From contig JABDCN010000012.1 of NCBI GenBank assembly GCA_013288125.1, positions 1 through 42,998 of the forward strand: DNA of 42,998 bases, given 5' to 3'. Shown piece after piece: positions 7,425 to 34,169 of the stretch. The position numbers and the translations under genes were made by a program. Positions within the stretch are counted from its first letter, which is position 1. Every line of letters starts with the position of its first letter. Below the pieces are notes generated by a model. The model ran no database searches. It was not told where the DNA came from and saw only the letters and a list, made by a program, of their open reading frames with translations. Source of the stretch: Gammaproteobacteria bacterium. Lineage in GTDB: Bacteria; Pseudomonadota; Gammaproteobacteria; DSM-16500.

Positions 7425-7463
7425 AAATTTTATTAATCTAGCAATACTACTTCCAAACGAAGC

Positions 7464-7547
7464 GTTGTCATCCTGAGCGTAGCGAAGGATCACTTGCAAT
7501 TATCATGACGTATTTTAGTGATCCTTCGCTACGCTCAGGATGACAAC
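7464..7547. repeat. Perfect 31-bp inverted repeat between convergent genes
   Basis: The arms at 7464-7494 and 7517-7547 are exact reverse complements around a 22-base loop. The core is TCATCCTGAGCGTAGCGAAG. A degenerate third piece follows at 7551-7573. It sits between two convergent stop codons, so it could act as a two-way terminator. The core resembles interspersed palindromes scattered through many bacterial genomes; that resemblance is from memory, not a search. Confidence 0.8.
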
Positions 7548-7580
7548 CTTGCTCAGGATAACAACGCTACGCTTTACTAA

Positions 7581-10178
7581 TCAAACCCTAGCCTTAATCA
7601 TGGGATGATGTACTAATTCTTCCAATGACAAAGGCTTCGTAAAATAAAACCCTTGTACATATTCACAACCCATTTTTTTTAGCATCTCAAATTGCTGTTG
7701 CGTTTCTACTCCTTCCGCAATAATTCTCAAACCCATACTATGCGCCAATTGAATAGTCGCATTAACAATTTCTGCATCAGGATGATTAGTAATGATATCA
7801 CGTACAAATTCTTGATCAATTTTAAGAACAGAAATAGGCAGCTTTTTTAAGTATTTCATTGATGAATAACTTACGCCAAAATCATCCAAAGCAAAATGTA
7901 CACCAAAATTTTTAAGCTGCACCATGATCTTTAATGCGTTATCAGGATTACGCATTAAAGCCGTTTCAGTTAATTCAAGTAACAAATTAGATGTACTAAT
8001 TTTCGTATCAGCAACGATATTTTTTAATACTTCAATAAAGTTAGCATTTTCTAGCTGCGTAACTGATATATTGACAGATAAAAGTAATGGATGATCATAA
8101 GCACTAAATACTTTTTGATAATCAGAACATGATTTACGTAATACCCACTCGCCTATTTGCTGAATCATTCCATTTTTCTCTGCGATGGGTATAAATTCTT
8201 CGGGAGAAATTTCGCCAAATTCTTCACTCTCCCATCTCACCAAAGCTTCTAGACCAACCGGCTGTCTAGAACGAGCATCGATCAACAATTGATATTTCAT
8301 CGAAAATTGCTGCCTTAATAAAGCTTGGCGCATGTATCTATCCATTTGATGGCGTCTATGAATCATTTTATAAATGATATTATCAAAAAATGCATAAGTC
8401 CCTTTACCTAATTCTTTTGCGTGATACATCGCAATATCTGCATTTTTAATTAATTCTTCAGTCTCTTCGCCCGCATCAGGAAAAAGCGCAACGCCAATAC
8501 TAATTGAGATATTGACCTCATCCCCATTAACGTAAATAGATTGATTCAGCAGATAGAAAATACTATCTAATAATGGACATATATCTATTTCAGGATGTAT
8601 GACATTTTCAATCACGATAGCAAATTCATCGCCGCCTAATCGAGAAAATGAATCTGAACTTCTCATTAATGATTTAATTAATTTAGCTGTAATTGATAAA
8701 ACACGATCTCCAATAGTATGCCCAAGATTATCATTAATTTGTTTGAAATTATCGATATCAATAAAACAAACGGCCAGTCTTGTTTTATTTACTTTTGCTT
8801 TTACAACAGCAGCATATAAATGCTTTAAAAATCCAGCACGATTTGGCAGTTCTGTTAATAAATCATAATATGCCATATGCTGCAATTCAGCTTCAAATTC
8901 TCGGCGTTGTGTAATGTCATTGAACACGACAACAGCACCTTTTATTTTATTTCCATCTTTGATAGGCGATGAAGTATATTCAACCCAAAAATAAGAGCCA
9001 TTTTTACGCCAAAAAGTTTCATTTGTAACATGCGAAATTTTTCCATATCTATAAGTATTATCAATTGGACAATTCTCTTTGGGATATATCGAACCATCTG
9101 CATGACTATGATGTAATATTTCATGTGTTGATCGACCAATAAAATCTTTTTCTTGATAACCCAACATTCGCTCCGCTGCTGGATTCATAAAAGTTAATTT
9201 TCCTTCCGTATCTATTCCATAAATCCCTTCACCTGCGGATTGCAAAATTAATAAATTTTTATATTCTTCATCTTTTAACGCTTTAATATGGAGATGAGCT
9301 TCCTGTTGAACAAGCATTTTTTGGCCGTTTATGATGAATAATACAATATTGACTAAAACGCAAAATAATAAAATACTCACTAGCATTAACCATAATTGCC
9401 ATGAAAAATGATCACTAGAAGAAATCACCGTAAGCGTTGCTTGGTTATTCTTTAATATAATTGAATATAAAATAGTGACACCAATGAAAACAATCGAAAG
9501 TGGAAATAAAATAGGTACAATTCTTTGTCTCCACATTTTTTTTGGATTTCCAAATAAAATTAAAACAGATGGCGTAAAAATTAAAACACCAATACAATCA
9601 CCTATCCACCATGTTTGCCAATTAATGAAATAATGATTTAATGGCATCAAACCAAGTAGTAATAATCCTGTATTACTCCAAGTTGAATTAATCAATGAAC
9701 CCAATGGACCAGATAATAATGCAAATAATAAAATATCATTGGGTTTAATTAATTGATTATTTAAACCGACTGTTTTTTTAATTAAATACCAAGCAAATAA
9801 AGTTTGTAAAGTTGCGCCAATTCCTATAATTAATGCAATATCGTAAGGAATACTTGTTTGCAAATCCATATTAAATCGCATTGTAATTAAAAAATTTGTC
9901 GCCCAAGAACCGAGAAAAATAGCGGGTAATATTCTTATGCCGTAAATCATAGCGATACCTAATGCAATACCTGAAGGAATCCAAATAGGTGTTGCATAGC
10001 CGGGTGGTATCGCAAATTTTAATCCGATATAGCCTGTTATTGCATATAATATTGCAACGAATAATACTGAAATAGGATAATCGAGATAATAATATATTTT
10101 CTTTATAAATGAGAACGAATCAGTTAACTTGGAATAATCAAATTTATTTTTTAATATTGACATAACAAAATGATTCAT
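7581..10178 (-). CDS. Membrane MASE1-PAS-GGDEF-EAL cyclic-di-GMP protein
   Basis: This 865-residue protein has a multi-helix N-terminal membrane region with MASE1 character (residues about 30-290, including PPGYATPIWIPSGIALG). A PAS domain follows (about 305-425). The GGDEF domain has an intact GGDEF motif at 515-519 and an RSSD inhibitory-site motif at 506-509, exactly five residues before it. The EAL domain has EAL at 644-646, and DDFG and EGVET are also present. Both active sites look intact, so the protein could make and degrade cyclic-di-GMP, with the membrane and PAS parts sensing an unknown signal. Its ATG overlaps the stop of the small upstream gene as ATGA, which implies translational coupling. 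Confidence 0.93.
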   Translation of the reverse strand: MNHFVMSILKNKFDYSKLTDSFSFIKKIYYYLDYPISVLFVAILYAITGYIGLKFAIPPGYATPIWIPSGIALGIAMIYGIRILPAIFLGSWATNFLITMRFNMDLQTSIPYDIALIIGIGATLQTLFAWYLIKKTVGLNNQLIKPNDILLFALLSGPLGSLINSTWSNTGLLLLGLMPLNHYFINWQTWWIGDCIGVLIFTPSVLILFGNPKKMWRQRIVPILFPLSIVFIGVTILYSIILKNNQATLTVISSSDHFSWQLWLMLVSILLFCVLVNIVLFIINGQKMLVQQEAHLHIKALKDEEYKNLLILQSAGEGIYGIDTEGKLTFMNPAAERMLGYQEKDFIGRSTHEILHHSHADGSIYPKENCPIDNTYRYGKISHVTNETFWRKNGSYFWVEYTSSPIKDGNKIKGAVVVFNDITQRREFEAELQHMAYYDLLTELPNRAGFLKHLYAAVVKAKVNKTRLAVCFIDIDNFKQINDNLGHTIGDRVLSITAKLIKSLMRSSDSFSRLGGDEFAIVIENVIHPEIDICPLLDSIFYLLNQSIYVNGDEVNISISIGVALFPDAGEETEELIKNADIAMYHAKELGKGTYAFFDNIIYKMIHRRHQMDRYMRQALLRQQFSMKYQLLIDARSRQPVGLEALVRWESEEFGEISPEEFIPIAEKNGMIQQIGEWVLRKSCSDYQKVFSAYDHPLLLSVNISVTQLENANFIEVLKNIVADTKISTSNLLLELTETALMRNPDNALKIMVQLKNFGVHFALDDFGVSYSSMKYLKKLPISVLKIDQEFVRDIITNHPDAEIVNATIQLAHSMGLRIIAEGVETQQQFEMLKKMGCEYVQGFYFTKPLSLEELVHHPMIKARV

Positions 10179-10444
10179 CCTTGTTTAGTCGGTGATCGGC
10201 TTGTTTCATCATGCTCTACACCAAGTTCTAATAAACACTTTAATATTTCATCTAATCTTGTTTTGGTTTCTATCGTGCTTCTCATATTTTCTTCTTCTGC
10301 AACTTCGAGTTCACGTTCGTCATATGCCCATCGACGTAAAATATCAATTTTTATTTCTCGAGATAACGATGTATCACTCAATACATCATGTGGATGATTA
10401 AAAACACTTGCGGGATCTAATTTCGCTTTATTTACATCGACCAT
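10175..10444 (-). CDS. Small conserved hypothetical protein coupled to the GGDEF/EAL gene
   Basis: This is an 89-residue acidic, soluble protein with no signal peptide or membrane segment. I chose the ATG at 10444 over an upstream TTG because AGAGAGGA lies six bases before it. The segment VFNHPHDVLSDTSLSREIKI, followed by DILRRWAYDERELEVAEEE, looks like a short conserved proteobacterial family of unknown role; I cannot name a domain. The C-terminal half is predicted helical. Its stop overlaps the start of the cyclic-di-GMP gene (ATGA), so both proteins should be made from one mRNA in a linked ratio. A role with the GGDEF/EAL protein is inference only. Confidence 0.75.
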   Translation of the reverse strand: MVDVNKAKLDPASVFNHPHDVLSDTSLSREIKIDILRRWAYDERELEVAEEENMRSTIETKTRLDEILKCLLELGVEHDETSRSPTKQG

Positions 10445-10697
10445 AAAGAATCCTCTCTTTCTGATCAAGCAAACTTATAATCGGGATCTAAAATATTCAT
10501 GTATATTAATAATATAGCATAAAATGAAGACCATTATTTTTTATTGATTAATCAATACATTTTTTCATATCATGAATTTCATCTTTATCACTTTGAATTT
10601 AATCATTTCTTAAGGATCTTAATAATATTTTATACAAAAAAATGATTATTAAATGAATAAGTTATCACTTGAATACAAAATAATCAAAAATTTAGGG

Positions 10698-10725
10698 TTG
10701 TTCATCTCTTTTTTTTCTGTATAAT
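10698..10725 (+). promoter_or_regulatory. Putative sigma-70 promoter of the mltD-like gene
   Basis: TTGTTC at 10698-10703 and a perfect TATAAT at 10720-10725 are separated by 16 bases. The ATG at 10733 lies only seven bases after the -10 box, where transcription would normally begin, so the transcript may be leaderless. Confidence 0.55.
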
Positions 10726-10732
10726 CTCTTGG

Positions 10733-11755
10733 ATGCAATATATTACAAGTCTAGTTAGATCAAAATTATTTATATCAGTTGTATTAAGTTGTCTCCTGAT
10801 TGTTGTGTGGAATAGTAGCAACAGAGATGTACCTGATCTTGTAAATTATTATTCTAGTAATAATCAAATTCGTCATTATCAACCTTTACCTGATAATAAA
10901 ACGTCGAGCATAAAATCAACTGACACTGTCTGGGAAAACATGAGCCGCGAGTTCAAGTTGGATCACCGGATTGAATCAGCGCGTGTGCAAAAAGAAATAC
11001 ATCGCATACTCGCAGATCAACATCATTTTTATAAAATTTTGAATGCTGCAATACCTTATATTCATTATATTTACCAACAAACACAAGCAAGAGGATTACC
11101 TGCAGAAATTGCACTTATTCCTTATATTGAAAGTGAATTTAATCCCAATGATAGATCCAATAAAGGTGCATTAGGTTTATGGCAATTGATGCCAGGCACA
11201 GCGAGAGGATTAGGCGTTAAAGTAAAATCTGGCTATGATGGGCGACGTAATGTCATTGCATCAACCAATGCTGCCATGTCTTATTTTAAAGATTTAGAAA
11301 AATTATTTAATGGTAATTGGTATTTAGCAATTGCTGCTTATAATTGTGGAGAAGGAAAAGTAAAATCCTCTATCAGACGATCTGGGCATAGAAATTTTTG
11401 GAATTTGCCTTTACCAAAAGATACAAAATATTATGTCCCGCGTTTATTGGCCATTGCTGCCATTATTAAAAATCCTGAATATTATGGCGTACAATTACCT
11501 CATGTAAAAAATAAAAAATATTTTACTGAAGTAAAAACAAAAAAACCTGTTAAATTCTCACATATCAGTAAACACATCACACGATCATCAACACGATCTT
11601 CAGGCATACAATTTGAAACTTTACGTGCATTAAATCCTGATTATTTACATCAAAAGAAGCCCAGCAAAAAAACAACGGATAGCTTTTTAATTCCTGCTGA
11701 AAATGAATTATCTGTCAAAGTAGAATTGGAAAACGCTCGTATATTAAAGAATTAA
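10733..11755 (+). CDS. mltD: Membrane-anchored lytic murein transglycosylase, MltD type, without LysM
   Basis: This 340-residue protein has an N-terminal hydrophobic anchor or signal (about 11-26) and an SLT (GH23) domain at about 115-235. The family's catalytic Glu is seen in PYIESEFNP, followed by GALGLWQLMPGTARGLG and AIAAYNCGEGKV. Such enzymes cleave peptidoglycan glycan strands to 1,6-anhydro products in the periplasm. E. coli MltD is longer and ends in LysM repeats; here the tail of about 100 residues is Lys/Ser-rich and shows no clear LysM. No Shine-Dalgarno precedes the ATG, which sits just after a TATAAT box. The 3' end overlaps the convergent FAD-monooxygenase gene by 12 bases. Confidence 0.88.
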   Translation: MQYITSLVRSKLFISVVLSCLLIVVWNSSNRDVPDLVNYYSSNNQIRHYQPLPDNKTSSIKSTDTVWENMSREFKLDHRIESARVQKEIHRILADQHHFYKILNAAIPYIHYIYQQTQARGLPAEIALIPYIESEFNPNDRSNKGALGLWQLMPGTARGLGVKVKSGYDGRRNVIASTNAAMSYFKDLEKLFNGNWYLAIAAYNCGEGKVKSSIRRSGHRNFWNLPLPKDTKYYVPRLLAIAAIIKNPEYYGVQLPHVKNKKYFTEVKTKKPVKFSHISKHITRSSTRSSGIQFETLRALNPDYLHQKKPSKKTTDSFLIPAENELSVKVELENARILKN

Positions 11756-12919
11756 CTCCATTTCTTGCAACATCGTCTTCACATAAGATTCTGCTACTAA
11801 GGGAATCAATTCTTGATACATCTCGACTAAACTTAAATTTCCTACTTGATTTTGAAACGCATGCAAATCTTCTTTTTTATCATAAACCATCGCGGATGAT
11901 GTTGCGTTTTCAAGTCGTGCTAATTGTTGGTAATGTTGTAATCGCATTTTTTCATAGGCTAAAAACGCATTATCCTGTTGATGTTGTAAATTTTTCAAAT
12001 AATGAAATAAGAAATAAGCATCTTCAATGGCTTGACTTGCGCCTTGCCCTAGAATAGGCCCTAAGGTATGAGCAGCATCACCGATTAATACAATATGCTG
12101 ATGTGATATTTTTTGAGATGACAAAATATTTATCGGCAAATAAAAACGTTGTTTGTTACTTGATGAAAATACCATTTGTTTGATTTCAGGTAACCAATCA
12201 TTACAATAATCATTTAACTGATGAAATTCTTTTTCTTGTGAATAATGTTCAAGCGGCATTTTCACGGGCAAATACCACATCATGCGTTGATGAACGGTTG
12301 GCCATGCAATAAATAGTTTATTAATTCCCATAGCCATATACGTTTTATTCGATAAAAAAGATGATGATTCATGATCCGCAATACCACCAAACCAACAAAA
12401 ATGACTGTATTGGTGTGCCGCTTCTCGGTTAATAGATTGCCGTACAGTTGAATAAAGTCCATCTGCACCAACTATTATATCTGCTGCATCTTCTGTTCCA
12501 TCTGAAAAATAAGCAGTTGCCTTATTGTTATCACTGCAAACATTGATACATTTTTTTGCGAGAAATAATGATTGAGTATCCAATTGTTTAAGTAAAGATT
12601 GCTGAAATGCGCTACGATCAATTGGTAAAATACTTCCACCAATTAATGAATATAATTCATCGTAATTTTCACTATAAATTTTTTCTCCCTCATCACTGAT
12701 TAAATCAATCCCATCTATTTTAATATCATATGGTTTGATATTGTCTGATAATCCTAGCCAATCAAGATAGCGTAATCCATGTGGCCATAATAAAATGCCT
12801 CCGCCAATATTTTGGAGTTGTTTTGCTTTTTCGTAAATGACGACTTCGATGCCGTGACGTTGACAAGCAATAGCTAACGTTAGACCTGCGATGCCAGATC
12901 CAATAATAATTACTTTCAT
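11744..12919 (-). CDS. FAD-dependent aromatic-ring-type monooxygenase (UbiH / salicylate hydroxylase superfamily)
   Basis: The 391-residue protein shows the three class A flavoprotein monooxygenase signatures: an N-terminal dinucleotide fold GSGIAG at residues 7-12, the DG motif in VGADGLYSTVR, and the GD motif in VLIGDAAHTLGPILGQGAS. Family members use NAD(P)H and oxygen to hydroxylate aromatic or related substrates. There is no signal peptide, so it is cytoplasmic. The substrate cannot be told from sequence; no catabolic or ubiquinone genes lie nearby. The ribosome binding site before the ATG is weak. Confidence 0.85.
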   Translation of the reverse strand: MKVIIIGSGIAGLTLAIACQRHGIEVVIYEKAKQLQNIGGGILLWPHGLRYLDWLGLSDNIKPYDIKIDGIDLISDEGEKIYSENYDELYSLIGGSILPIDRSAFQQSLLKQLDTQSLFLAKKCINVCSDNNKATAYFSDGTEDAADIIVGADGLYSTVRQSINREAAHQYSHFCWFGGIADHESSSFLSNKTYMAMGINKLFIAWPTVHQRMMWYLPVKMPLEHYSQEKEFHQLNDYCNDWLPEIKQMVFSSSNKQRFYLPINILSSQKISHQHIVLIGDAAHTLGPILGQGASQAIEDAYFLFHYLKNLQHQQDNAFLAYEKMRLQHYQQLARLENATSSAMVYDKKEDLHAFQNQVGNLSLVEMYQELIPLVAESYVKTMLQEMELIL

Positions 12920-23048: not shown

Positions 23049-23179
23049 TTAAATATTTTTAAATAACTCATTGATTGATAAAAGAATTAAGTAATTCGCC
23101 CTCTTTCTCTTAAGACTATTTTAATAATATTTTGTTATTCTTATTTTTAAATTTTTATTACACAAATGAGAAAAACGCT

Positions 23180-23611
23180 ATGTTTAGATTATTTCAGCAG
23201 CGACAAGAACCGAAATTTTTATTTACAATAGGATATGCAGTCGGAATGCTCTATGCTTTTTCTAACATATTAAACGAACTGGTAAATCATAACAATTTCC
23301 AATTCGGGATGAGAATACCCGAACAACTAGATATGGTGTATCGAGAAGAATTTGATAATTTAATTGCACTCGCCTTTATCAACCCTAATAATTTTAATTT
23401 TACTGACCTATCCTTATATAACCTAATTGAAAGTGGCATAATTTCTTCGGCAGGTTTTATGTGTGGAAATAACATTGTAACTGCGTATCCTTTTATCACT
23501 TTGACTAACCTTATCCTGGCAATACCAGATGAAATCGGCGGGTCTCTCATTCAAAATTCTATCGCATCTGTGGGAGATGCAGTAGACGCTGTAATAAGAA
23601 GATTCGGATAA
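23180..23611 (+). CDS. Hypothetical protein
   Basis: This 143-residue protein is not recognised. I chose the ATG at 23180 over an earlier codon at 23132 because the upstream extension is low-complexity Phe/Tyr/Asn and GAG lies about ten bases before this ATG. The sequence has moderately hydrophobic patches (FLFTIGYAVGMLYAFSNIL and YPFITLTNLILAIP) but no clear signal peptide, and an amphipathic, glycine-containing C-terminus (SIASVGDAVDAVIRRFG). It ends ten bases before the convergent acylase gene. No function is proposed. Confidence 0.55.
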   Translation: MFRLFQQRQEPKFLFTIGYAVGMLYAFSNILNELVNHNNFQFGMRIPEQLDMVYREEFDNLIALAFINPNNFNFTDLSLYNLIESGIISSAGFMCGNNIVTAYPFITLTNLILAIPDEIGGSLIQNSIASVGDAVDAVIRRFG

Positions 23612-23621
23612 ATTATAATTT

Positions 23622-25910
23622 TTAACTTGACTGCAATATCAAACAATTTTTTTGTCCGTACACACAAGCAGCAGTTGATTGAATCATAATATATTTACCA
23701 TCACGCCATTTATTCAATAAATCTGTATAATGATGTGAAAATGGATTACCAGATTGTCCCATGGGAATAATATAAAGACTCTGATCGAAGTTACTTAAAT
23801 CAATAATTTGTCTGTAGGTCGCGCCTTTTGTTTGCTTAAAACTGTCCGGATCATATCCTCCTACATTCACTGTATAGTTTCCCCCTGAACTTTTAATTGA
23901 TCTATTCCAAATTGATTTAATCAAGGTAATTTTACCAAAGCCATTTGCAACAAACTCAGCTTGATGAAGTTTACCCCACTGCCAATTTGACAGATTGTTT
24001 CCTTGTTCTTTTATTAATGTTTCCATGGCAAGCGCTAAGCTTATTTGCAATGCCTTTGGCGAAATATTATTTTGCAATTCATGCAGTAAATAAAGCGGCT
24101 CTATTGTTTTACCTTGTTGTCGTAATATTTTTGGCACATCATCTGTAAATATACTAATCCAATAAGAAAAAATAGTTGGTGCAGCACTATTCATTACCAT
24201 ATCACCAGACCATTTTTGTAAAATATTGATAGCAAGTTGACTATTTTTATCTAAAGGCTTCACTTTAAGAAGATAAGGTTTGAGTTGTAACCAAAAATTA
24301 CTTTTAACATCCGCTTGAATGGCAGCGATATCATTCATAGATAATTTAGGTTTTTGTTGAATGAGTTGTATGATGCGATCAACGCGATAAGGTGTGATCG
24401 GCCAACGCGCATTAATTGATAAAGAATAATCATCACTTGTTACTTTATTATTTGCTGTTGCAATATATCCTATCGCTGGATTATAAACATGAGGTAAGCG
24501 TTCAAATGGAATATATCCTTTCCATTGATATTGTTGCTGAGTTGGCACAGGTGTTAAACTTTTCCAACCACGTATAGGTAGTAAACCTGGATAATAATAA
24601 CCAATGTTACCATTTGTATCTGCATACATAAAATTTTGTGTTGGTGTAATAAAATCTTTTAATGCTGTTGTAAATTCTTGCCAATTTTTTGCATAATTAA
24701 TTTTAATAAAGCTTTGCACAGTTGTATCGCCAGGGAAAAGTGCAGGCCATTTAAGTGCTATTTGATTTGGCATCTTATCTTTAAGCAAATGAAAACCAGG
24801 TGTGACTTGATTAATGATAGGACCATATTTACTTTCATATACGCGTAAATTAATACTAGCATTACCTCTTACCTTGATTAATTCATTGTGATAAGTCACC
24901 GTATCATTTTTATTGAGAATATAAAGTTCTGCTGCGTCGTTGTATCCACTCGTTACACCCCAAGCAATGTTATCATTATGTCCAATCGCAATGGCAGGTA
25001 AACCTGGGATAGAAGCACCCGTTACATGAAAAGAAGGTGTTCGAATTTCAACAAGATACCAAAGATTAGGCGCGGTTAATGATAAGTGTACATCATTGGC
25101 TAAATAAGGTTTTCCACTTATTGTTTTTGAACCAGCGACAACCCACCCATTCGATCCTAATGCAACGCTTGATGATAAATTTAATTGATCACGCAATTTG
25201 TCGTCTGCTGAAGCCATCTTAATTAAAGGTTTTTGTTTAAATGGAAGCGAATTTTTTTGATTTGCTAAAATAAGTGGTGCATTGCTTGGATAATCAGGAA
25301 AATATTTTTCAATCGCATGATTGCCAAAATTTAATTGAGCAAGCGCATAAGTAATTTTGTCATCCCAACTATGATTTTGCAAATTCCAACACATCATTTT
25401 TTGCCAAGCAATACTATCAATCACTGTCCATGGTTGTGGTTTATAATGTAGTAATTGTACTTCGATCGAAAAATTACCCTGCTTAATATAAGCATTCACC
25501 CCTTTGGTATAACTTTTAATGAATGCTTTTGTACGATCATCAAAGGCTGGCCAAGCTAATTCTGCCGCATGATAGAATCCGTAAGTCCGCAAATATTTAT
25601 CTATTTTTATTGTTTTCTTACCAAATAATTCACTTAACGTACCTGAAGCAACTCTACGCTGAAATTCCATTTGCCAAAATCGATCTTGAGCATGCACATA
25701 ACCCAATGCAAAAAACGCATCTTCATCATGATTAGCATTGATATGTGGAATACCATTTTTATCACGGTAAATGCTGACACTTCCCTGTAGATCAGAAAAA
25801 AATAATCTTCCTTTAGTCGTTATTGTTGATCTATAGGTTATATATCCTGCAATAGATATTATAATAATAAAAAACATGAAAATGAGTTTACGCACTACGC
25901 TGCCTGCCAT
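23622..25910 (-). CDS. Penicillin/AHL-acylase-family N-terminal-nucleophile hydrolase
   Basis: The 762-residue precursor has an N-terminal signal or anchor (about 9-26). The alpha-chain includes GYVHAQDRFWQMEFQRR (70-86). The self-cleavage site is VALGSNGWVV, placing the nucleophile Ser at 253. The beta-chain shows GKPYLANDVHLSLTAPNLWY and the oxyanion-type ATANNKV. Family enzymes are periplasmic heterodimers that hydrolyse N-acyl amides: penicillins, acyl-homoserine lactones or lipopeptide acyl chains. Its start overlaps the capA-like stop by 23 bases. As last gene of an operon with a possible N-acyl synthase, it may mature or destroy that product; this is inference. Confidence 0.9.
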   Translation of the reverse strand: MAGSVVRKLIFMFFIIIISIAGYITYRSTITTKGRLFFSDLQGSVSIYRDKNGIPHINANHDEDAFFALGYVHAQDRFWQMEFQRRVASGTLSELFGKKTIKIDKYLRTYGFYHAAELAWPAFDDRTKAFIKSYTKGVNAYIKQGNFSIEVQLLHYKPQPWTVIDSIAWQKMMCWNLQNHSWDDKITYALAQLNFGNHAIEKYFPDYPSNAPLILANQKNSLPFKQKPLIKMASADDKLRDQLNLSSSVALGSNGWVVAGSKTISGKPYLANDVHLSLTAPNLWYLVEIRTPSFHVTGASIPGLPAIAIGHNDNIAWGVTSGYNDAAELYILNKNDTVTYHNELIKVRGNASINLRVYESKYGPIINQVTPGFHLLKDKMPNQIALKWPALFPGDTTVQSFIKINYAKNWQEFTTALKDFITPTQNFMYADTNGNIGYYYPGLLPIRGWKSLTPVPTQQQYQWKGYIPFERLPHVYNPAIGYIATANNKVTSDDYSLSINARWPITPYRVDRIIQLIQQKPKLSMNDIAAIQADVKSNFWLQLKPYLLKVKPLDKNSQLAINILQKWSGDMVMNSAAPTIFSYWISIFTDDVPKILRQQGKTIEPLYLLHELQNNISPKALQISLALAMETLIKEQGNNLSNWQWGKLHQAEFVANGFGKITLIKSIWNRSIKSSGGNYTVNVGGYDPDSFKQTKGATYRQIIDLSNFDQSLYIIPMGQSGNPFSHHYTDLLNKWRDGKYIMIQSTAACVYGQKNCLILQSS

Positions 25911-26946
25911 ATAAACGATTCATCAATTTGAGTAATTTTACCTTATCTTTTTCATTTACCATATGTAATGGAATAATATGATATTGATTAGCTATTTTAT
26001 GTTGATAAAAATAATGTATTTTATAAGAATGTAAAGGATTATTTCCCTCTTTGCTAAGATTAACTTCTAATATCGGAATTAATTTTACCGTTGCTGCAGC
26101 AGCAAAGCCACAAAAATTTCCTAAATTATAAGCACATACTCCCTCTTCGAACCACTCTATTGATTGAAGTGTATGCGTATGGGCCCCAATAATAAAATCT
26201 ATCCCTTTATCATTGATTAAATTTCTTGCTAATGAACGTGTTTTTTGACAAGGAAAATGTTGAAATTCATATTCCCAATGCGGCAATCCGAATAAATAAT
26301 TCAACTGATAAGTATTTTTAATTTGACGCCAATCATGCGCAAGAATATGTTTCTGCCGATTAACGCCTTCATCATTCTCAAAGATGGGCCGATTAAGCCA
26401 TTCAGTCCATGCAATAAAACCAATACGCATACCATTTGTTTCAATCACATTCATCGGTAAATTATTTTCTTTATATCTCCCTAATGCCGTAATTTTCATA
26501 TCAGCTAAAATATCGTACGTTTGATCATAAGCAAAATATCCTTTATCACCGATGTGATTATTTGCTGTTGAAAGAATCCACTTGCTTGCATCTAAACCTG
26601 TTTGATAAATAATATCTTCTAAAAATCGTCTTGGCATATGAAATGAAAATCCATATTTAATATTTTTATCTGGATAATGATTGCCAAGCGGCGCTTCGCA
26701 ATTTCCAATAAAAAAATCAGCTGATTTTATTAGTGCACATAATGTTGGATGCAACACAGGAGGGATATCTTGATGCTGCACCATGATATCGCCGCAAAAC
26801 ATCAAACGTAAATGCGTGCTTTTATCTTTATAAAATAAATGGCTATCAGGTGCTATAGGCATGCCTGTATGATTACGATGAGATGGAAAACGATAATAAT
26901 ACGGCCAGCGCAATGTGTAATGCCACGGATAAGGTGAAAACATCAT
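25888..26946 (-). CDS. CapA/PgsA-like metallophosphoesterase-fold protein
   Basis: The 352-residue protein matches the CapA family (bacterial capsule / poly-gamma-glutamate protein): MFCGDIMVQ, FFIGNCEAPLG, STANNHIGDKG, FIAWTEW and IIGAHTHTLQ, then AYNLGNFCGF. These supply the metal ligands of a calcineurin-like fold. Poly-gamma-glutamate synthesis is doubtful because no CapB/CapC genes are present. No signal peptide is seen. I chose the ATG at 26946: it forms ATGA with the stop of the preceding gene, and AGGA lies nine bases upstream. A longer start at 26964 is possible. Confidence 0.82.
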   Translation of the reverse strand: MMFSPYPWHYTLRWPYYYRFPSHRNHTGMPIAPDSHLFYKDKSTHLRLMFCGDIMVQHQDIPPVLHPTLCALIKSADFFIGNCEAPLGNHYPDKNIKYGFSFHMPRRFLEDIIYQTGLDASKWILSTANNHIGDKGYFAYDQTYDILADMKITALGRYKENNLPMNVIETNGMRIGFIAWTEWLNRPIFENDEGVNRQKHILAHDWRQIKNTYQLNYLFGLPHWEYEFQHFPCQKTRSLARNLINDKGIDFIIGAHTHTLQSIEWFEEGVCAYNLGNFCGFAAAATVKLIPILEVNLSKEGNNPLHSYKIHYFYQHKIANQYHIIPLHMVNEKDKVKLLKLMNRLYGRQRSA

Positions 26947-27614
26947 AAATAAATTTCCTGACATGCCTGTGAATTCATTAGAGAATACATATCTTCCAAA
27001 AAGCTCCCTTTAAACAAAATATATTGGTGATTACCGCGATGCGGAATATTAAAACCAAGATTGGTATTTGTCACTTTAAAATGTCTAAATAAGCGCCTGA
27101 CGAGTAAAGTGCTATATCCAAAATAATAACGATAATGCGTTGTTGCTAAAGTTTGCATGCCCGCATACACAATCAAAGCATTCAGCAGATAAGGCATTTT
27201 GATTTCTGCTGAAATTAATAAACGAGTCCACTCGAGATAATCTTTTCTATAATTTTTACCAAGCAAACTCTCTACTCGATCTAAAGTAAGTAATTTTTCT
27301 GTTTCAAATGGGTGAGGACACAAGCGTACACTAGCGACCATTTCATCATGCAACCAAGCAGCATACACTTGACCATGCGCATCAAAGCAATCTTTACCAT
27401 CTTCATTCAATTCGGTCATCATATATGGTTTCTTTGCTTGATAATTTTTTTGTCTAAATTGTCCGAGCTGCCGCCACTCTTCATCGCTACTAATCTTACC
27501 AAATTGAATATCATCCGATTTCGGATGTTGAATAATTGATTTTGAAAACAGCTGAATAAAATTTTCATTCAGCTGTTTTTTTATCGTCGGAAATAGGAGG
27601 TTAGCAGCGCCCAT
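26943..27614 (-). CDS. FeeM/LuxI-fold N-acyl amino acid synthase-like acyltransferase
   Basis: The 223-residue protein resembles the GNAT-related autoinducer-synthase fold. It has EEWRQLGQFRQKNY (entry helix), MTELNEDGKDCFDAHGQVYA, ASVRLCPHPF, then LLTLDRVESLLG and LEWTRLLIS, with a C-terminal half typical of FeeM-type N-acyl amino acid synthases or exosortase-associated acyltransferases. Such enzymes join a fatty acyl group from acyl-carrier protein to an amine. No exosortase is visible. AAAGG lies nine bases before the ATG at 27614. It follows the diiron gene by 16 bases and overlaps the capA-like gene by ATGA. The fold call is recognition by eye; the substrate is unknown. Confidence 0.6.
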   Translation of the reverse strand: MGAANLLFPTIKKQLNENFIQLFSKSIIQHPKSDDIQFGKISSDEEWRQLGQFRQKNYQAKKPYMMTELNEDGKDCFDAHGQVYAAWLHDEMVASVRLCPHPFETEKLLTLDRVESLLGKNYRKDYLEWTRLLISAEIKMPYLLNALIVYAGMQTLATTHYRYYFGYSTLLVRRLFRHFKVTNTNLGFNIPHRGNHQYILFKGSFLEDMYSLMNSQACQEIYL

Positions 27615-27630
27615 CAATATAGGCCTTTTA

Positions 27631-28386
27631 TTATGCAGTTTTACTTATCATCTCTGCTGCTTTAATCGACTGGCTTACAACTTTTACGGCAGTGTAATCC
27701 GATTTAGATAATGTTTGATGATAGAGATCGATAAAATAGCCAACAAATATGCCATAAATATGATGAAGATGTTCAAACATTTTATTTTCATCTTTCTCAT
27801 TTTTAATCAGCGACGACAAAACATTCCAAACAAAATCATTATGCCCATCACGAATATCATGATCAACGTGTCCACGTGCACCCATTAAATTTTCTTTCCC
27901 AAATACACGTTCTAAATTATCTAACCAGATAGGCTGTGTTTTTCTTGTTGTATATTCGATAAAATAAGCGCTAACAATAGAAGCCATTGGACCTTCATGC
28001 TCTAACGTAAAATAAAAATATCCATTCAATAATTTAGTCGAAAATAAAAGTTCATATTGCTCATCTATTTCTGTCAACGTGATACCCGTTAATTTTTGCA
28101 AATCATTAGCAAACATTTTTCCATGCAACATTTCATCTTCTATATACTGCGCCCATAATTTAGCTAACTGAAGATCATGCTTAGTAAAATAATGAATGAC
28201 TAATGCATCAATCATACGTTTATGTTTTATTCTTAAAATGGTTTCTATGGTATGGCGTTTAAAATAATTCAAATCAATTAATTCACTGTCTTTCTGATAA
28301 TTAGCAAGAGGTGCATCTTGATAAAAGGCTGCAATCATTTTTTCTAAGGCCGCGTCTACACGTTCACGTAACTCATTTTCATGCAT
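27631..28386 (-). CDS. Heme-oxygenase-like diiron (TenA/UndA-type) protein
   Basis: The 251-residue all-helical protein has the metal-ligand pattern of the heme-oxygenase-like diiron oxidase superfamily: YIEDEMLHGKMF (E85, H88), LEHEGP (E131) and GHVDHDIRDGHND (candidates H176, D180 and H182). Members carry out oxygen-dependent chemistry such as fatty-acid decarboxylation to alkenes (UndA) or N-oxygenation; others are thiaminase-like. I chose the ATG at 28386 because GGGAG lies about nine bases upstream; a start 22 codons earlier is weaker. It is the first gene of the four-gene operon ending at 23622. Substrate and product are unknown. Confidence 0.7.
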   Translation of the reverse strand: MHENELRERVDAALEKMIAAFYQDAPLANYQKDSELIDLNYFKRHTIETILRIKHKRMIDALVIHYFTKHDLQLAKLWAQYIEDEMLHGKMFANDLQKLTGITLTEIDEQYELLFSTKLLNGYFYFTLEHEGPMASIVSAYFIEYTTRKTQPIWLDNLERVFGKENLMGARGHVDHDIRDGHNDFVWNVLSSLIKNEKDENKMFEHLHHIYGIFVGYFIDLYHQTLSKSDYTAVKVVSQSIKAAEMISKTA

Positions 28387-28521
28387 ACCATTCCACTCCC
28401 TTTTCTGTGGCGATTTCAGATAAAGAGAATAATAAACGATAAAGTGGAACAAGATGGTGACATGAAAGTAACAAAATTGTGGGAAAATTTAAGTTAATAC
28501 TATTAGTGCCTGGCACCTTTT

Positions 28522-29601
28522 TTATAAAGGAAAATACAGGTGAACTGTCGTACCAATGTTAATCTGACTGTTAATCGCAATCTTACCCTCATGCAATTCT
28601 ATGATAGACTTAACAATTGCCAAACCGAGTCCCAACCCACCTGTCTCAATTGAACGAGAGGAATCCACTCTAAAAAAACGATCAAATACTTTATTGAGGT
28701 ATTTTTCTTCAATCCCTATACCGGTATCACGAATTAAAATATAGACGTATTCAGGTATTGATGAAATCTGTATGTAAATTTCTCCATTATGCGGTGTATA
28801 ACGCAATGAGTTAGTAATAATATTACTCATTGCACGCCTAAATAATGTTGAATCAGCTTGAACCCTAACGTCACCAACACACTGAATACGAATATTATTC
28901 TCATGAATAATAGGCTCATAATAATCAATTATTTTTTTAATTTCAGTTTGACCACAAAGACTTGTTTTTTGTATTTTAAATTGCCCGTGATCTGCATGCG
29001 CAAGAAACAATAAACTTTCAATTAATTTTAAAAGATGCTGACATTCTTCCATATTCGATTCAAAAATAGTCTGCTGCTTTTCTTGAGAATAATTATTTAA
29101 CAAAGCAAGTTCATTAATACCAACTAAGTTATGAATTGGCGTACGCAACTCATGAGCGATATTCGCTGAAAATTGTGTCATCTGTAAAAATGATTTTTGT
29201 AATTTTTCCAGCATAAAATTATAAGATTCAGCCAAAGGCCTTAATTCGATAGGCATGTCATTAGGGTCAAATTTTTCAGTTAATGAATTAACAGTGACCA
29301 TTTTCATTTTATGAGAAAATTTTTGAATATATTTTATACTTTTGTTAGTAATTATTTTTGCAAAAATAACAGCGAGGATAACACTGACAATCAAGCTTAG
29401 CTCTAGTCGTTGCATACAAGCGCTAAAAAAATGATCTTGATAATCAATTTGATCTGCGTGATTAATTCTCTCAAGTGAGGGAAATAAAATACAAATCGCT
29501 AAACTAATGATAGTAATTGTTGTGAGGCTATAAACTAGAATAAGTCGATTAACAAGTGAAAGTGACCGTAAATTGATAAATCTACCTAATTTCCAAAACA
29601 T
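28522..29601 (-). CDS. Sensor histidine kinase, CusS/heavy-metal type
   Basis: The 359-residue kinase has two membrane segments (about 20-41 and 66-86) around a very short periplasmic loop of about 25 residues. A HAMP-like linker follows, then HisKA with SANIAHELRTPIHNL (phospho-accepting H150). The ATPase domain shows NIITNSLRYTP, DTGIGI, FDRFFRVDSSR and GGLGLGLAIVKSI. The short loop suggests it senses within the membrane or through a partner rather than binding a large ligand. Its start overlaps the response-regulator gene by 20 bases. Confidence 0.93.
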   Translation of the reverse strand: MFWKLGRFINLRSLSLVNRLILVYSLTTITIISLAICILFPSLERINHADQIDYQDHFFSACMQRLELSLIVSVILAVIFAKIITNKSIKYIQKFSHKMKMVTVNSLTEKFDPNDMPIELRPLAESYNFMLEKLQKSFLQMTQFSANIAHELRTPIHNLVGINELALLNNYSQEKQQTIFESNMEECQHLLKLIESLLFLAHADHGQFKIQKTSLCGQTEIKKIIDYYEPIIHENNIRIQCVGDVRVQADSTLFRRAMSNIITNSLRYTPHNGEIYIQISSIPEYVYILIRDTGIGIEEKYLNKVFDRFFRVDSSRSIETGGLGLGLAIVKSIIELHEGKIAINSQINIGTTVHLYFPL

Positions 29602-31085: not shown

Positions 31086-34000
31086 TTAAGTAATAGGTTC
31101 ATCTGCCAAATCATCATCTAACGCTTGTTTATGCGAATGATCAGCAGCCAGAAATAAATAAACTGCTGGCACAACAAACAAAGTAAATAATGTACCAATT
31201 GCAATGCCGGTTGCAATCACTAATCCAATATTATACCGACTCACAGCACCTGCACCACTTGCATTAATTAATGGAATCACACCCAGTACCATCGCAACGG
31301 TTGTCATTAAAATAGGACGTAAACGAATCGCAGCGGCCATTTGCACGGCTTCCCTTTTTTTCTTTCCTTCTGCTTGCAAATCATTTGCAAATTGCACGAT
31401 AAGAATACCATGTTTACTGATTAATCCGATGAGCGTCACTAATCCTACTTCAGAATAAATATTTAAACTCGCCCCTCCAACACCTAAACTAATAAAAATC
31501 ATTGCCCCGCAAATTGACATGGGAACACTAATCAATACAATCAAAGGATCACGAAAACTTTCAAATAATGCAGCGAGCGAAAGAAAAATCATGATTAACG
31601 CAAAAAAGAAAGTGAAGATAAGTGTCGCACCTTCCCTAATATATTGGCGAGATTGTGCTGCATAATCGATCGTATATCCTTGCGGTAAAATAGTCGTCGC
31701 AATTTCTTTTAGTTTCGCTAAGGCATCACCCATCGTAATACCTGGAAATGCAATAGCAGAAATCGTCGCCGAATTTAATTGTTGAAAATGATTCAACGAT
31801 TCCGGCATGACAGTTGTTTTTAACGATGCAATCGTTGATAAAGGTATTGATTCGCCACTTGCTGTTTTAATGTAATAATCCAACACACTTTTGCTATTCA
31901 AACGTGACATGCGTATGGTTTGCGGAATCACTTGATAAGATCGTCCCGCATAATTGAAATAATTGATATAGCCCTGACTTAAAGCAAAACCTAATACATT
32001 ACCGACATCTTGCATCGTCAAACCAAATTGCGAAATTTTATTTCTATCTAATAAAATCGTTGTTTGTGCCTTATCTATTTTTAAATCTGGATCAATATAC
32101 ATAAATAAACCAGTCGCGCGCGCTTTATCAACCAATAATTTTGTCACTGCGTTGAGATCATTAAAATCATTTGTTGTTGTGATAACAAATTGAATAGGTA
32201 AACCACTTCCGCCTCCCGGCAAAGAAGGTAATTGAAATGCAGCAATTTTTCCGCCTGTAATTTGATTCAAATCATTTTGTACTAACGGTTGTATTTCATT
32301 ACTGGTACGCGTTCTTTCATCCCAAGGCTTTAATACCATACCAACGATACTAACATTTAATCCATTTGCACCATCAATTTGAAAGGAATGCGCAAATTCA
32401 GGAAATTTTTTATAAATACTATAAATTTGATCTGAATATAACTTTGTCTGATAAATAGTCGCATTCGGAGCACCTGTTAATTGCGCAATGATAATCCCTT
32501 GATCTTCTTGTGGTGCTAATTCAGATTTTGATGTCACAAAAAGAAAATAATTGCTTAAAAAAATTATCGCAGCAAATACGCCAATCACAGGCAAAAAATC
32601 AAGCGCATGATGTAAAGTTCTTTCATAAGCTTGTTCTAATTTTTTAAATTGTTTATCGACATAATGAATAAAAGAACGTTTTGATTTATCCGTATCTGGT
32701 TTTAAAAATTTAGAACACATCATGGGAGATAAAGTTAATGCAATAATAGCGGAAATCGTCACTGCACCTGCTAGTGTAAATGCAAATTCAGTAAATAAAG
32801 CGCCGGTTAATCCGCCCATAAAACCAATTGGCAAGTAAACCGCGATTAAAACAACAGTAATCGCAACAATCGGGCCTGCTAATTCTCTTGCACCCAACAA
32901 CGCAGATTGCACGACAGATTTACCTTCTTCCATAAGCCGCTGCACGTTTTCAACAACAATAATCGCATCATCAACAACTAATCCAATCGCTAATACAAGC
33001 GCTAATAAGGTTAATAAATTGATAGAATAATGGAGCATCAACATAATGAAAAACGCGCCGATAATGGATAACGGTATTGCAATCAAAGGAATTAAAACAG
33101 AACGAAGTGAGCCGAGAAATAAATAAATCACGATACTCACAATCAAAAAGGCTTCTAACAATGATTTAATCACTTCATGTATTGAGCTATGAACATAAGC
33201 ACTCGCATCATAAACAATGTTACCTTCTAATCCTTTAGGAAATTGTTGTTGGATTTCAGGAAAGACTTGGCGAACATTATTGATGACTGATAATAAATTT
33301 GCACTCGGTGCCAATTTAATCCCAATATAAACGGCGGATTTACCATCGAAACTGACGGAAGAATCGTAATTTTGCGCACCTAATGAAACTGTGCTGACAT
33401 CACCTAAACGTACTAAAATATTATTTCTGGATTTAATCACCATATTGCGAAATTGGTCGACTGTCACAAGTCCTGTGTCAGCTGTTAGATTAACTGTCAC
33501 CATCCTGCCATCAGTACGCCCCACCGCAGAAATAAAATCATTATTAGCTAAAGCATTTGCCACATCATTTGCGGTGACACCAAATCCTGCCATCTTCACA
33601 GGATCTAACCACGCACGCAAAGCAAATTGCCGACTCCCTAAAATTTCTGCTGTTTGCACACCATTAATCGCTTGTAATTTTGGTTGCACAACACGAATTA
33701 AATAATCTGTAATTTGATTATTAGGAATGACATCGCTATAAAATCCCATATACATCGAATCAATGGTTTCACCAATAGCAACAGAAAGAACGGGTTGCTG
33801 AGAATTTTTCGGTAATTGATTTAATACAGCAGTGACTTTTGTTGTAATATCAGATAACGCTTTCAGTGGATCATAATTTAAAAGCAAATTGACTTGTATA
33901 TTACTCGTGCCTTGCGTACTCGTCGATGTCATATAATCAATGCCATTAGCTTGGGCAATCGAATTTTCCATCGGCGTTGTAATGAAACCTGCAACCGTTG

Positions 34001-34169
34001 CAGGACTAGCACCCGTATACGTTGTAATCACACTAACAACAGCATTTTGTGTAAAAGGATATTGCATGATCGGCAAACCAAAAATCGCGCGTAATCCCAA
34101 TACAAAAATAATGAGACTGACAACTGTCGCAAGCACTGGCCGTTTGATAAATAAATCAGTAAAAACCAT
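31086..34169 (-). CDS. RND multidrug efflux permease (HAE1/AcrB type)
   Basis: This 1027-residue inner-membrane pump has full AcrB-like length, starting MVFTDLFIKRPVLATVVSL. The proton-relay Asp pair is in LALVLAIGLVVDDAIIVVEN, and a second TM bundle ends GLISKHGILIVQFANDLQAEG and RLRPILMTTVAMVLGVIPL. It exports drugs or toxic organics using the proton gradient, together with the adaptor and outer-membrane factor encoded just upstream. Its ATG overlaps the adaptor stop (TAATG), implying coupling. Substrate range cannot be read from sequence. Confidence 0.94.
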   Translation of the reverse strand: MVFTDLFIKRPVLATVVSLIIFVLGLRAIFGLPIMQYPFTQNAVVSVITTYTGASPATVAGFITTPMENSIAQANGIDYMTSTSTQGTSNIQVNLLLNYDPLKALSDITTKVTAVLNQLPKNSQQPVLSVAIGETIDSMYMGFYSDVIPNNQITDYLIRVVQPKLQAINGVQTAEILGSRQFALRAWLDPVKMAGFGVTANDVANALANNDFISAVGRTDGRMVTVNLTADTGLVTVDQFRNMVIKSRNNILVRLGDVSTVSLGAQNYDSSVSFDGKSAVYIGIKLAPSANLLSVINNVRQVFPEIQQQFPKGLEGNIVYDASAYVHSSIHEVIKSLLEAFLIVSIVIYLFLGSLRSVLIPLIAIPLSIIGAFFIMLMLHYSINLLTLLALVLAIGLVVDDAIIVVENVQRLMEEGKSVVQSALLGARELAGPIVAITVVLIAVYLPIGFMGGLTGALFTEFAFTLAGAVTISAIIALTLSPMMCSKFLKPDTDKSKRSFIHYVDKQFKKLEQAYERTLHHALDFLPVIGVFAAIIFLSNYFLFVTSKSELAPQEDQGIIIAQLTGAPNATIYQTKLYSDQIYSIYKKFPEFAHSFQIDGANGLNVSIVGMVLKPWDERTRTSNEIQPLVQNDLNQITGGKIAAFQLPSLPGGGSGLPIQFVITTTNDFNDLNAVTKLLVDKARATGLFMYIDPDLKIDKAQTTILLDRNKISQFGLTMQDVGNVLGFALSQGYINYFNYAGRSYQVIPQTIRMSRLNSKSVLDYYIKTASGESIPLSTIASLKTTVMPESLNHFQQLNSATISAIAFPGITMGDALAKLKEIATTILPQGYTIDYAAQSRQYIREGATLIFTFFFALIMIFLSLAALFESFRDPLIVLISVPMSICGAMIFISLGVGGASLNIYSEVGLVTLIGLISKHGILIVQFANDLQAEGKKKREAVQMAAAIRLRPILMTTVAMVLGVIPLINASGAGAVSRYNIGLVIATGIAIGTLFTLFVVPAVYLFLAADHSHKQALDDDLADEPIT

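What the first reader, a model, noticed from the sequence alone, without database searches (positions are those of the whole stretch)
23622..28386. Four-gene operon pairing a FeeM/LuxI-fold synthase with a diiron oxidase, a CapA-like enzyme and an N-acyl hydrolase
Seen: four minus-strand genes with a 16-base gap, an ATGA overlap and a 23-base overlap, so they are almost certainly co-expressed. Known: FeeM-type enzymes make N-acyl amino acids, heme-oxygenase-like diiron enzymes oxidise fatty acids or amines (UndA, for example), and penicillin-acylase homologues hydrolyse N-acyl amides including acyl-homoserine lactones. Inferred: the operon makes, modifies and then matures or removes an N-acylated small molecule, possibly a signal or lipid. 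I know of no described pathway with this combination.
Basis: partly seen in the sequence, partly recalled or inferred. Interest (0 to 1): 0.78.

Follow-up and report, generated by a model that had tools for sequence, protein, structure and literature searches.

The report
Acylate-oxidise-release amino acid operon
Four neighbouring bacterial genes appear to attach an acyl cap to an amino acid, oxidise it with an iron enzyme related to the one that makes the plant toxin mangotoxin, and then cut the cap off outside the cytoplasm, a combination that looks like an undescribed small-molecule pathway.

Summary
[quoted passage not shown] Its only significant solved relative is the acetylenase MboA (E 3e-22); all six MboA iron ligands and the catalytic Tyr are kept. 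Gene 2 (26943-27614) hits no Pfam model, but profile comparison places it in the LuxI/FeeM acyl-synthase superfamily (pairwise E 2.8e-8; 0 of 100 shuffles), with the LuxI signature residues. Gene 3 is a CapA-family metalloenzyme. Gene 4 is a penicillin-acylase-type hydrolase with a membrane anchor.

Among the 36 genomes held for the order, close homologues of all four genes occur in the same two, in the same order (G005 has two extra genes inserted) and in different surroundings. Legionella tunisiensis has genes 1-3; no gene 4 was found. In 4 of 6 more distant HDO loci opened, ATP-grasp ligases sit beside the oxidase; here an acyl-synthase-like gene does.

Best reading: an N-acyl amino acid is made, desaturated by the diiron enzyme, possibly epimerised by the CapA-like enzyme, and deacylated in the periplasm. 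Substrate and product are unknown. The paper searches run listed no such pathway.

The parts
27631..28386 (-). Heme-oxygenase-like diiron oxidase, MboA-related (251 aa). Fe ligands by alignment E85, H88, E144, H173, D177, H182; Tyr81 = MboA Tyr82; MboA Asp90 -> Gly89, Asn57 -> Lys56, Asp139 -> Ala140
   Evidence: phmmer to PDB 9ypi MboA E 3.1e-22; 9-homologue alignment with all six ligand columns and Tyr81 invariant; first seven Foldseek hits of the model are UndA, CADD-like and TenA proteins; MboA residue roles from PMC13185094
26943..27614 (-). Acyltransferase-like protein of the LuxI / PEP-CTERM / FeeM superfamily (223 aa); signature R54, Y58, Y64, D75, D78, R97, E128, R131
   Evidence: hhalign prob 95, pairwise E 2.8e-8 over 170 columns, 0 of 100 column shuffles as good; signature compared with LuxI ORFs; no Pfam or NCBIfam match and no meaningful PDB match
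25888..26946 (-). CapA-family (PGA_cap) metallophosphatase-fold protein; motifs GDIM, GNCEAP, NNHIGD, HWEYEF, GAHTHTLQ present
   Evidence: Pfam PGA_cap 117.6 bits vs cut-off 27; motifs; weak similarity to epimerase MslH, E 0.0018, far under its cut-off; no PDB match by sequence
23622..25910 (-). Penicillin-acylase-type Ntn amide hydrolase with N-terminal hydrophobic anchor (762 aa); predicted nucleophile Ser253 after Gly252
   Evidence: Penicil_amidase 668.5 bits; best solved relative D-succinylase 7ea4, E 5.7e-69; hydropathy maximum 2.15 for 19-residue windows within residues 2-22
28387..28521 (-). Intergenic leader upstream of gene 1, presumed promoter region; no convincing consensus promoter
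   Evidence: sequence; 30 promoter-like matches in 23400-28700 against 28.1 expected from shuffles
27545..27579 (-). Near-perfect 17-base inverted repeat (16 pairs and a 3-base loop when folded as RNA) in the non-conserved 5' part of gene 2
   Evidence: (z -4.44, 0 of 200 shuffles); no comparable hairpin in the first 85 bases of gene 2 in G005 and L. tunisiensis

Best explanation
A small biosynthetic operon that works on an N-acylated amino acid. (1) The LuxI/FeeM-superfamily enzyme joins an acyl group, probably from acyl-ACP, to the amine of an amino acid or similar carboxylate-bearing amine. (2) The MboA-related diiron oxidase holds the product by its carboxylate on Fe1 and removes hydrogen from the side chain; with no MboB-type reductase seen in the operon it should stop at the alkene (2-electron) stage or borrow a general reductase. 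(3) The CapA-family enzyme acts on the same residue, perhaps by epimerising its alpha carbon as its relative MslH does. (4) The membrane-anchored Ntn acylase cuts the acyl group off in the periplasm and releases the mature compound, a protect-modify-release logic. Shown: enzyme families, catalytic residues, linkage. Inferred: substrate, order of steps, CapA role, periplasmic release, product.
For: Gene 1: MboA homology with all six Fe ligands and the catalytic Tyr kept; MboA binds its substrate by the C-terminal carboxylate and, without MboB, makes only (trace) alkene (PMC13185094, passages). Gene 2: superfamily placement and signature. Amide-forming neighbour: in 4 of 6 HDO loci opened outside the window clade an ATP-grasp gene lies directly downstream of the oxidase (Streptomyces, Burkholderia, Paraburkholderia plasmids; G014), not in Enterobacter or G015; here gene 2 takes that place. 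Gene 4: Penicil_amidase, Ser nucleophile, membrane anchor; its best solved relative, D-succinylase, acts on D-amino acids (PMC11241749 passages; that these are N-succinyl-D-amino acids is recalled). CapA relative MslH epimerises a C-terminal residue (PMC9266682 passages). Linkage: close homologues of genes 2, 3 and 4 only in the same 2 of 36 order genomes and gene 1 close in those two; genes 1-3 together in L. tunisiensis.
Against: No substrate or product is known. Two of three guanidinium-binding residues of MboA are changed (Asn57 to Lys, Asp139 to Ala), so the side chain acted on is probably different and the reaction may differ too. MboA's Asp90 is Gly in the window clade only, Asp or Glu in the six other rows. 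No acylase match was found in L. tunisiensis (a draft, and an empty answer is weak), so release may not be obligatory. Enterobacter, with the nearest outside HDO, has neither an ATP-grasp nor a recognised acyl-synthase gene in the table. The MslH match is weak and short, so epimerisation is a guess. The gene 2 model is of low confidence (pLDDT 42) and its Foldseek matches are all E >= 0.4. Only 17 of the 36 order genomes are at least 90% complete with at most 5% contamination, so some absences may be gaps; the window genome itself is 65% complete.
Confidence: 0.45

Rival explanations
1. Lipid or signal operon: the LuxI-like enzyme makes an N-acyl amino acid or lactone-like signal that is oxidised and exported, and the acylase degrades or recycles it (quorum-quenching or self-limitation) rather than maturing it.
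For: LuxI signature residues in gene 2; weak PvdQ-family similarity of gene 4 (43 bits); operon near a two-component system and an RND transporter gene.
Against: No LuxR-type regulator among the six neighbouring ORFs scanned; PvdQ equivalog cut-off (950 bits) not approached; the nearest oxidase MboA acts on an amino-acid side chain. That L. tunisiensis shows genes 1-3 without a found acylase equally suits a stable signal.
Confidence: 0.2
2. The oxidase acts first on a free amino acid, and the acyltransferase then caps the toxic product as cytoplasmic self-protection, with periplasmic deacylation on export (prodrug logic in another order).
For: Some HDOs act on free amino acids (for example HrmI on L-lysine; PMC13108848 passages); the acylase has a membrane anchor.
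Against: The nearest homologue MboA uses a capped (tripeptide) substrate (PMC13185094), and 4 of 6 related loci opened have ligase genes next to the oxidase.
Confidence: 0.2
3. The enzyme acylates an amine made by decarboxylation: in G005 a pyridoxal-dependent decarboxylase gene sits between genes 2 and 3, so the building block could be beta-alanine, a diamine or a similar amine.
For: Pyridoxal_deC 3.8e-50 in G005 between gene 2 and CapA; best NCBIfam matches to tyrosine, diaminobutyrate and aspartate decarboxylases, all far below cut-off.
Against: Found in 1 of 11 genomes searched, G005 itself; not in the window genome (65% complete), and not among the ORFs of the L. tunisiensis locus.
Confidence: 0.1
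4. Chance neighbours without a shared pathway.
For: No gene 4 match in L. tunisiensis.
Against: Same order and tight packing in two genomes with unrelated flanks, and no close homologue of any of the four found in the other 34 of 36 order genomes.
Confidence: 0.05

Closest known systems
MboA, HDO acetylenase of mangotoxin biosynthesis (PMC13185094, PDB 9ypi)
   Same: Overall homology, all six iron ligands and catalytic Tyr; like MboA's cluster and 4 of 6 related loci opened, the oxidase gene is accompanied by an amide-forming enzyme class
   Different: No ATP-grasp ligase, MboB-type reductase or deiminase among the ORFs scanned; Arg-binding Asn57 and Asp139 and flexible ligand Asp90 replaced
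FeeM N-acyl amino acid synthase / LuxI acyl-homoserine lactone synthase / PEP-CTERM-associated acyltransferases
   Same: Profile similarity across 170 columns and LuxI signature spacing (R, +4, +10, +21, +24; ExxR)
   Different: No match to the family models; close homologues found only in the two other copies of the operon (42-49% identical); Tyr at two aromatic positions that are Phe and Trp in LuxI ORFs L057-L060
MslH (CapA-family lasso peptide epimerase) and CapA/PgsA of poly-gamma-glutamate
   Same: PGA_cap domain with the usual metal motifs
   Different: Only weak similarity to MslH; function untested
D-succinylase / penicillin G acylase / PvdQ (Ntn hydrolases, S45)
   Same: Full-length Penicil_amidase domain, Gly-Ser processing site, N-terminal anchor
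   Different: Reaches no NCBIfam equivalog cut-off; acyl specificity unknown
Lipothrenin pathway (PMC10616846, passages)
   Same: Also an N-acyl amino acid with diiron oxidation and epimerisation
   Different: AurF-like diiron enzyme, ThiF-family protein linked to epimerisation, FabH-like gene; none of the four families here appeared in the passages read

Membership tests
Heme-oxygenase-like diiron oxidases (HDO) | 3-His/3-carboxylate iron ligand set | tested here: met
   E85, H88, E144, H173, D177, H182 align with MboA ligands and are invariant in 9 homologues
Heme-oxygenase-like diiron oxidases (HDO) | Helical HDO fold | tested here: met
   Model of middling confidence (pLDDT 65.5); first seven Foldseek hits UndA, CADD-like, TenA with prob 0.98-1.00 but E >= 0.034
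Heme-oxygenase-like diiron oxidases (HDO) | Pfam Haem_oxygenas_2 above curated cut-off | tested here: not met
   17.9 bits vs 28.9; G005 copy 22.5; the Enterobacter relative passes with 32.4
MboA acetylenase | Arg guanidinium-binding residues Asn57, Asp61, Asp139 | tested here: not met
   Lys56, Asp60, Ala140: one of three kept
MboA acetylenase | Dedicated reductase MboB and ATP-grasp ligases in the operon | tested here: not met
   None among the ten ORFs between 21990 and 34169 scanned with Pfam; the rest of the genome was not searched for them
LuxI / FeeM acyl synthase superfamily | Profile similarity beyond chance | tested here: met
   prob 95, pairwise E 2.8e-8, 0 of 100 shuffles vs 17 pooled members; prob 91 vs 8 LuxI-like rows; weak vs 9 PEP-CTERM-like rows alone (prob 31, E 5e-4); prob 92, E 6.3e-7 vs 18 of 29 FeeM-family ORFs, taken by length (<= 310 aa), not by motif
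LuxI / FeeM acyl synthase superfamily | Signature R..F..W..D..D..R..ExxR (its status as LuxI signature is recalled) | tested here: met
   R54, Y58, Y64, D75, D78, R97, E128, R131; first five spaced as in LuxI ORFs L057-L060; two aromatics are Tyr; all eight invariant in the three operon copies
Pfam FeeM (PF21926) or Autoind_synth (PF00765) | Score above curated cut-off | tested here: not met
   No match; window genome without a match in both family searches
CapA (PGA_cap) | Domain score and metal motifs | tested here: met
   117.6 bits vs 27; five motifs, chosen from recall
MslH-type epimerase | Score above equivalog cut-off | tested here: not met
   16.7 bits vs 700
Penicillin-acylase family (S45) | Domain and N-terminal nucleophile after a processing site | tested here: met
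   668.5 bits vs 21.3; many phmmer alignments to mature beta chains run from query Ser253 to chain residue 1
PvdQ acyl-homoserine lactone acylase | Score above equivalog cut-off | tested here: not met
   43.4 bits vs 950
All four | Enzyme activity | not testable with these tools
   needs bench work

The most novel reading that the evidence does not exclude
A new class of natural-product pathway in which a LuxI-fold enzyme supplies an acyl cap instead of a peptide ligase, a diiron oxidase desaturates the capped amino acid, a CapA-family enzyme inverts its alpha carbon and a periplasmic Ntn acylase releases an unsaturated D-amino acid antimetabolite. It would join quorum-sensing-type acyl synthases and mangotoxin-type oxidases in one route.
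Probability: 0.15. Interest if true: 0.8.

Novelty: new variant of a known kind. Interest (0 to 1): 0.56.

Why it matters
Only about a dozen HDOs had been functionally validated at the time of a 2026 review (PMC13108848 passages). This operon gives a compact, testable case in which the amide-forming partner seems to have been swapped from a peptide ligase to a LuxI/FeeM-type acyl synthase; it predicts the substrate class (N-acyl amino acid) and the last step (periplasmic deacylation). It also shows that the LuxI/FeeM superfamily holds groups that the family models used here do not detect.

Tried and rejected
Looking for wider distribution of gene 2: a class search with a two-row profile found only the window genome in 369 drawn; viral contigs gave 31 pattern stretches and no relative; plasmids none.

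AlphaFold of gene 2 gave a poor model whose Foldseek hits (several GNAT enzymes near the top; FeeM 2g0b at ranks 21 and 34) are all insignificant; I do not lean on it. A first LuxI alignment held a wrong ORF for one locus and missed two; its results (prob 71 and 0.1) were replaced. In one search the eight LuxI-like rows and nine of the ten motif-bearing FeeM-family rows (10 of 29 ORFs carried the motif; the tenth was left out as an odd long ORF) were picked with a motif pattern, which favours a motif match; the set, taken by length, gives the same verdict but may hold wrong ORFs, having been cut at the locus midpoint. hhalign E-values are for one pairwise comparison.

UndA-like fatty-acid decarboxylation was put lower because the sequence match is to MboA, although the model's first fold hit is UndA. 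The G005 decarboxylase as a fixed member was rejected. Promoter and terminator scans were uninformative. Rfam had no match in the window and no 16S gene was found in the genome, so the organism was not identified. A nucleotide search of the Enterobacter oxidase in E. coli genomes found nothing, and a paper search about that cluster was not pursued.
Full report
Observation. The four minus-strand genes exist as described: an oxidase at 27631-28386, a small acyltransferase-like protein at 26943-27614, a CapA-like protein ending at 25888 (start 26946 gives the ATGA overlap; a longer start at 26964 is possible) and a penicillin-acylase-like protein at 23622-25910. Upstream lie a two-component system and an HTH protein, then an RND transporter gene (31086-34169); downstream, convergent, a small hypothetical ORF (23132-23611) and an arginase-family gene.

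Gene 1. Pfam sees a sub-threshold Haem_oxygenas_2 match. Against the PDB its only significant sequence match is MboA, the mangotoxin acetylenase (E 3.1e-22). MboA uses ligands Glu86, His89, Glu143, His172, Asp176 and His181, with Tyr82 as possible base (PMC13185094, first sixth of the text and passages). By my reading of the alignment these are E85, H88, E144, H173, D177, H182 and Y81 here, and all seven are invariant in nine homologues. The residues that hold the arginine side chain in MboA (Asn57, Asp61, Asp139) are Lys56, Asp60 and Ala140: one of three is kept. MboA's extra ligand Asp90 is Gly in the window, G005 and L. tunisiensis copies, Asp in five and Glu in one of the six other rows. 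The three operon copies form a supported clade (99/99), with an Enterobacter plasmid protein (51% identity) next (91/95); the tree tool warns of long branches, G015 above all, so deeper forks are unsure. Without MboB, MboA makes only trace alkene; no MboB-like reductase is among the ten ORFs scanned, so a 2-electron desaturation is the default expectation.

Gene 2. No Pfam or NCBIfam match and no meaningful PDB match. The three operon homologues (42-49% identity) make a profile that aligns with 17 pooled LuxI-like and PEP-CTERM/FeeM-family proteins over 170 columns (prob 95, pairwise E 2.8e-8; best of 100 column shuffles scores 21.7 against 58.2). With eight LuxI-like ORFs alone it is prob 91; with nine PEP-CTERM-like rows alone only prob 31; with 18 FeeM-family ORFs of up to 310 aa prob 92. 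The HDO alignment as control scored prob 0.2, 1.9 and 0.2 against the three sets. The signature R54-Y58-Y64-D75-D78-R97-E128-R131 has the same spacing in its first five members as LuxI ORFs L057-L060. A published table lists FeeM Glu94 and Gln97, and LasI Glu101 and Arg104, among active-site residues (PMC9654057, passages); the ExxR of gene 2 resembles the LasI pair. The structure prediction was too poor to help.

Gene 3. PGA_cap domain with the usual motifs. The CapA-family protein MslH epimerises the C-terminal Trp of a lasso precursor, and a homologue acts in poly-gamma-glutamate synthesis (PMC9266682, passages). The sequence match to MslH is weak. Epimerisation here is an inference.

Gene 4. 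Full-length penicillin amidase with a hydrophobic N-terminal stretch. Many mature beta chains of solved acylases align from Ser253. [quoted passage not shown] PMC11241749, passages). Residue 22 after the nucleophile is His275; that this is the position of the His found in PvdQ and cephalosporin acylases is recalled.

Linkage. In the window's order (36 genomes held, 17 of them at least 90% complete with at most 5% contamination) homologues of gene 3 and gene 4 occur in 2 of 36, the window genome and G005 (G005 also has a second CapA gene at 29% identity). Gene 2 occurs in the same 2 of these 36, and in no other of the 94 relatives searched, and in 1 of 369 class genomes drawn (the window's own). 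Gene 1 matches in 4 of 36, two of them (G014, G015) distant HDOs at 27-29% identity in other gene settings. In G005 the order is HDO, gene 2, pyridoxal decarboxylase, CapA, small membrane protein, acylase. L. tunisiensis has HDO, gene 2 and CapA in a row, followed by glutaminase-like sequence, with an Lrp-like gene divergent upstream; its gene 2 ORF is short and CapA is split in that draft, which may be sequence error. It has no acylase match (the tool notes that an empty answer without a positive control shows little). No flanking window ORF of at least 120 aa matches the fetched stretches of the other two, so the block appears to sit in three different surroundings.

Context of relatives. 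Of eight plasmid records with an HDO match I opened four. In Streptomyces, Burkholderia and Paraburkholderia the HDO is followed directly by ATP-grasp genes; in Enterobacter by an M14/AstE-like metallopeptidase gene and an MFS transporter. Of the two distant loci of the same genus, G014 has an ATP-grasp gene directly downstream and G015 does not. So 4 of 6 loci have the ligase there, and the window clade has the acyl-synthase-like gene instead. This is the main argument that gene 2 supplies the amide bond of the oxidase's substrate.

Known or new. Paper searches combining HDO, diiron, N-acyl, FeeM, acylase, GNAT and related terms listed no pathway with this combination; for most papers only the listing was seen, and most subscription papers are not held. 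The families are known; the combination and the gene 2 subgroup appear undescribed: a new variant of a known kind.

Noticed in passing
L011 (G014) 9660-12908: An MboA-like HDO (29% to gene 1, Asn at the MboA Asn57 position) followed by an ATP-grasp gene, a second ORF that looks like another by eye, and an MFS-like ORF: a possible mangotoxin-like cluster in the same genus.
   Followed up: partly
L012 (G015) 6799-9909: A distant HDO between a PhzF-like ORF and a fatty-acid-desaturase-like ORF (names by eye).
   Followed up: no
L023 (Enterobacter chuandaensis plasmid pE20191216) 3984-16221: Unusual cluster with two HDO genes, U32 peptidase, aminotransferase, DUF2817/AstE-like peptidase, MFS and nucleotidyltransferase genes; one HDO is the nearest outside relative found (51%) of gene 1.
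   Followed up: partly
window 27545-27579: Strong stem-loop (z -4.44, 0 of 200 shuffles) followed by U's inside the variable 5' end of gene 2; no comparable hairpin at that place in the two other copies. Possible attenuator or inserted repeat.
   Followed up: partly
window 28506-28516: Near-palindrome GTGCCAGGCAC between the histidine kinase stop and gene 1; one copy in the window, none expected from shuffles.
   Followed up: no
window 23132-23611: Orphan ORF with only a sub-threshold DIP2116-like match, convergent with the acylase gene.
   Followed up: no
G005:C1:1095352-1096167: A second, 29% identical CapA-family gene elsewhere in G005.
   Followed up: no
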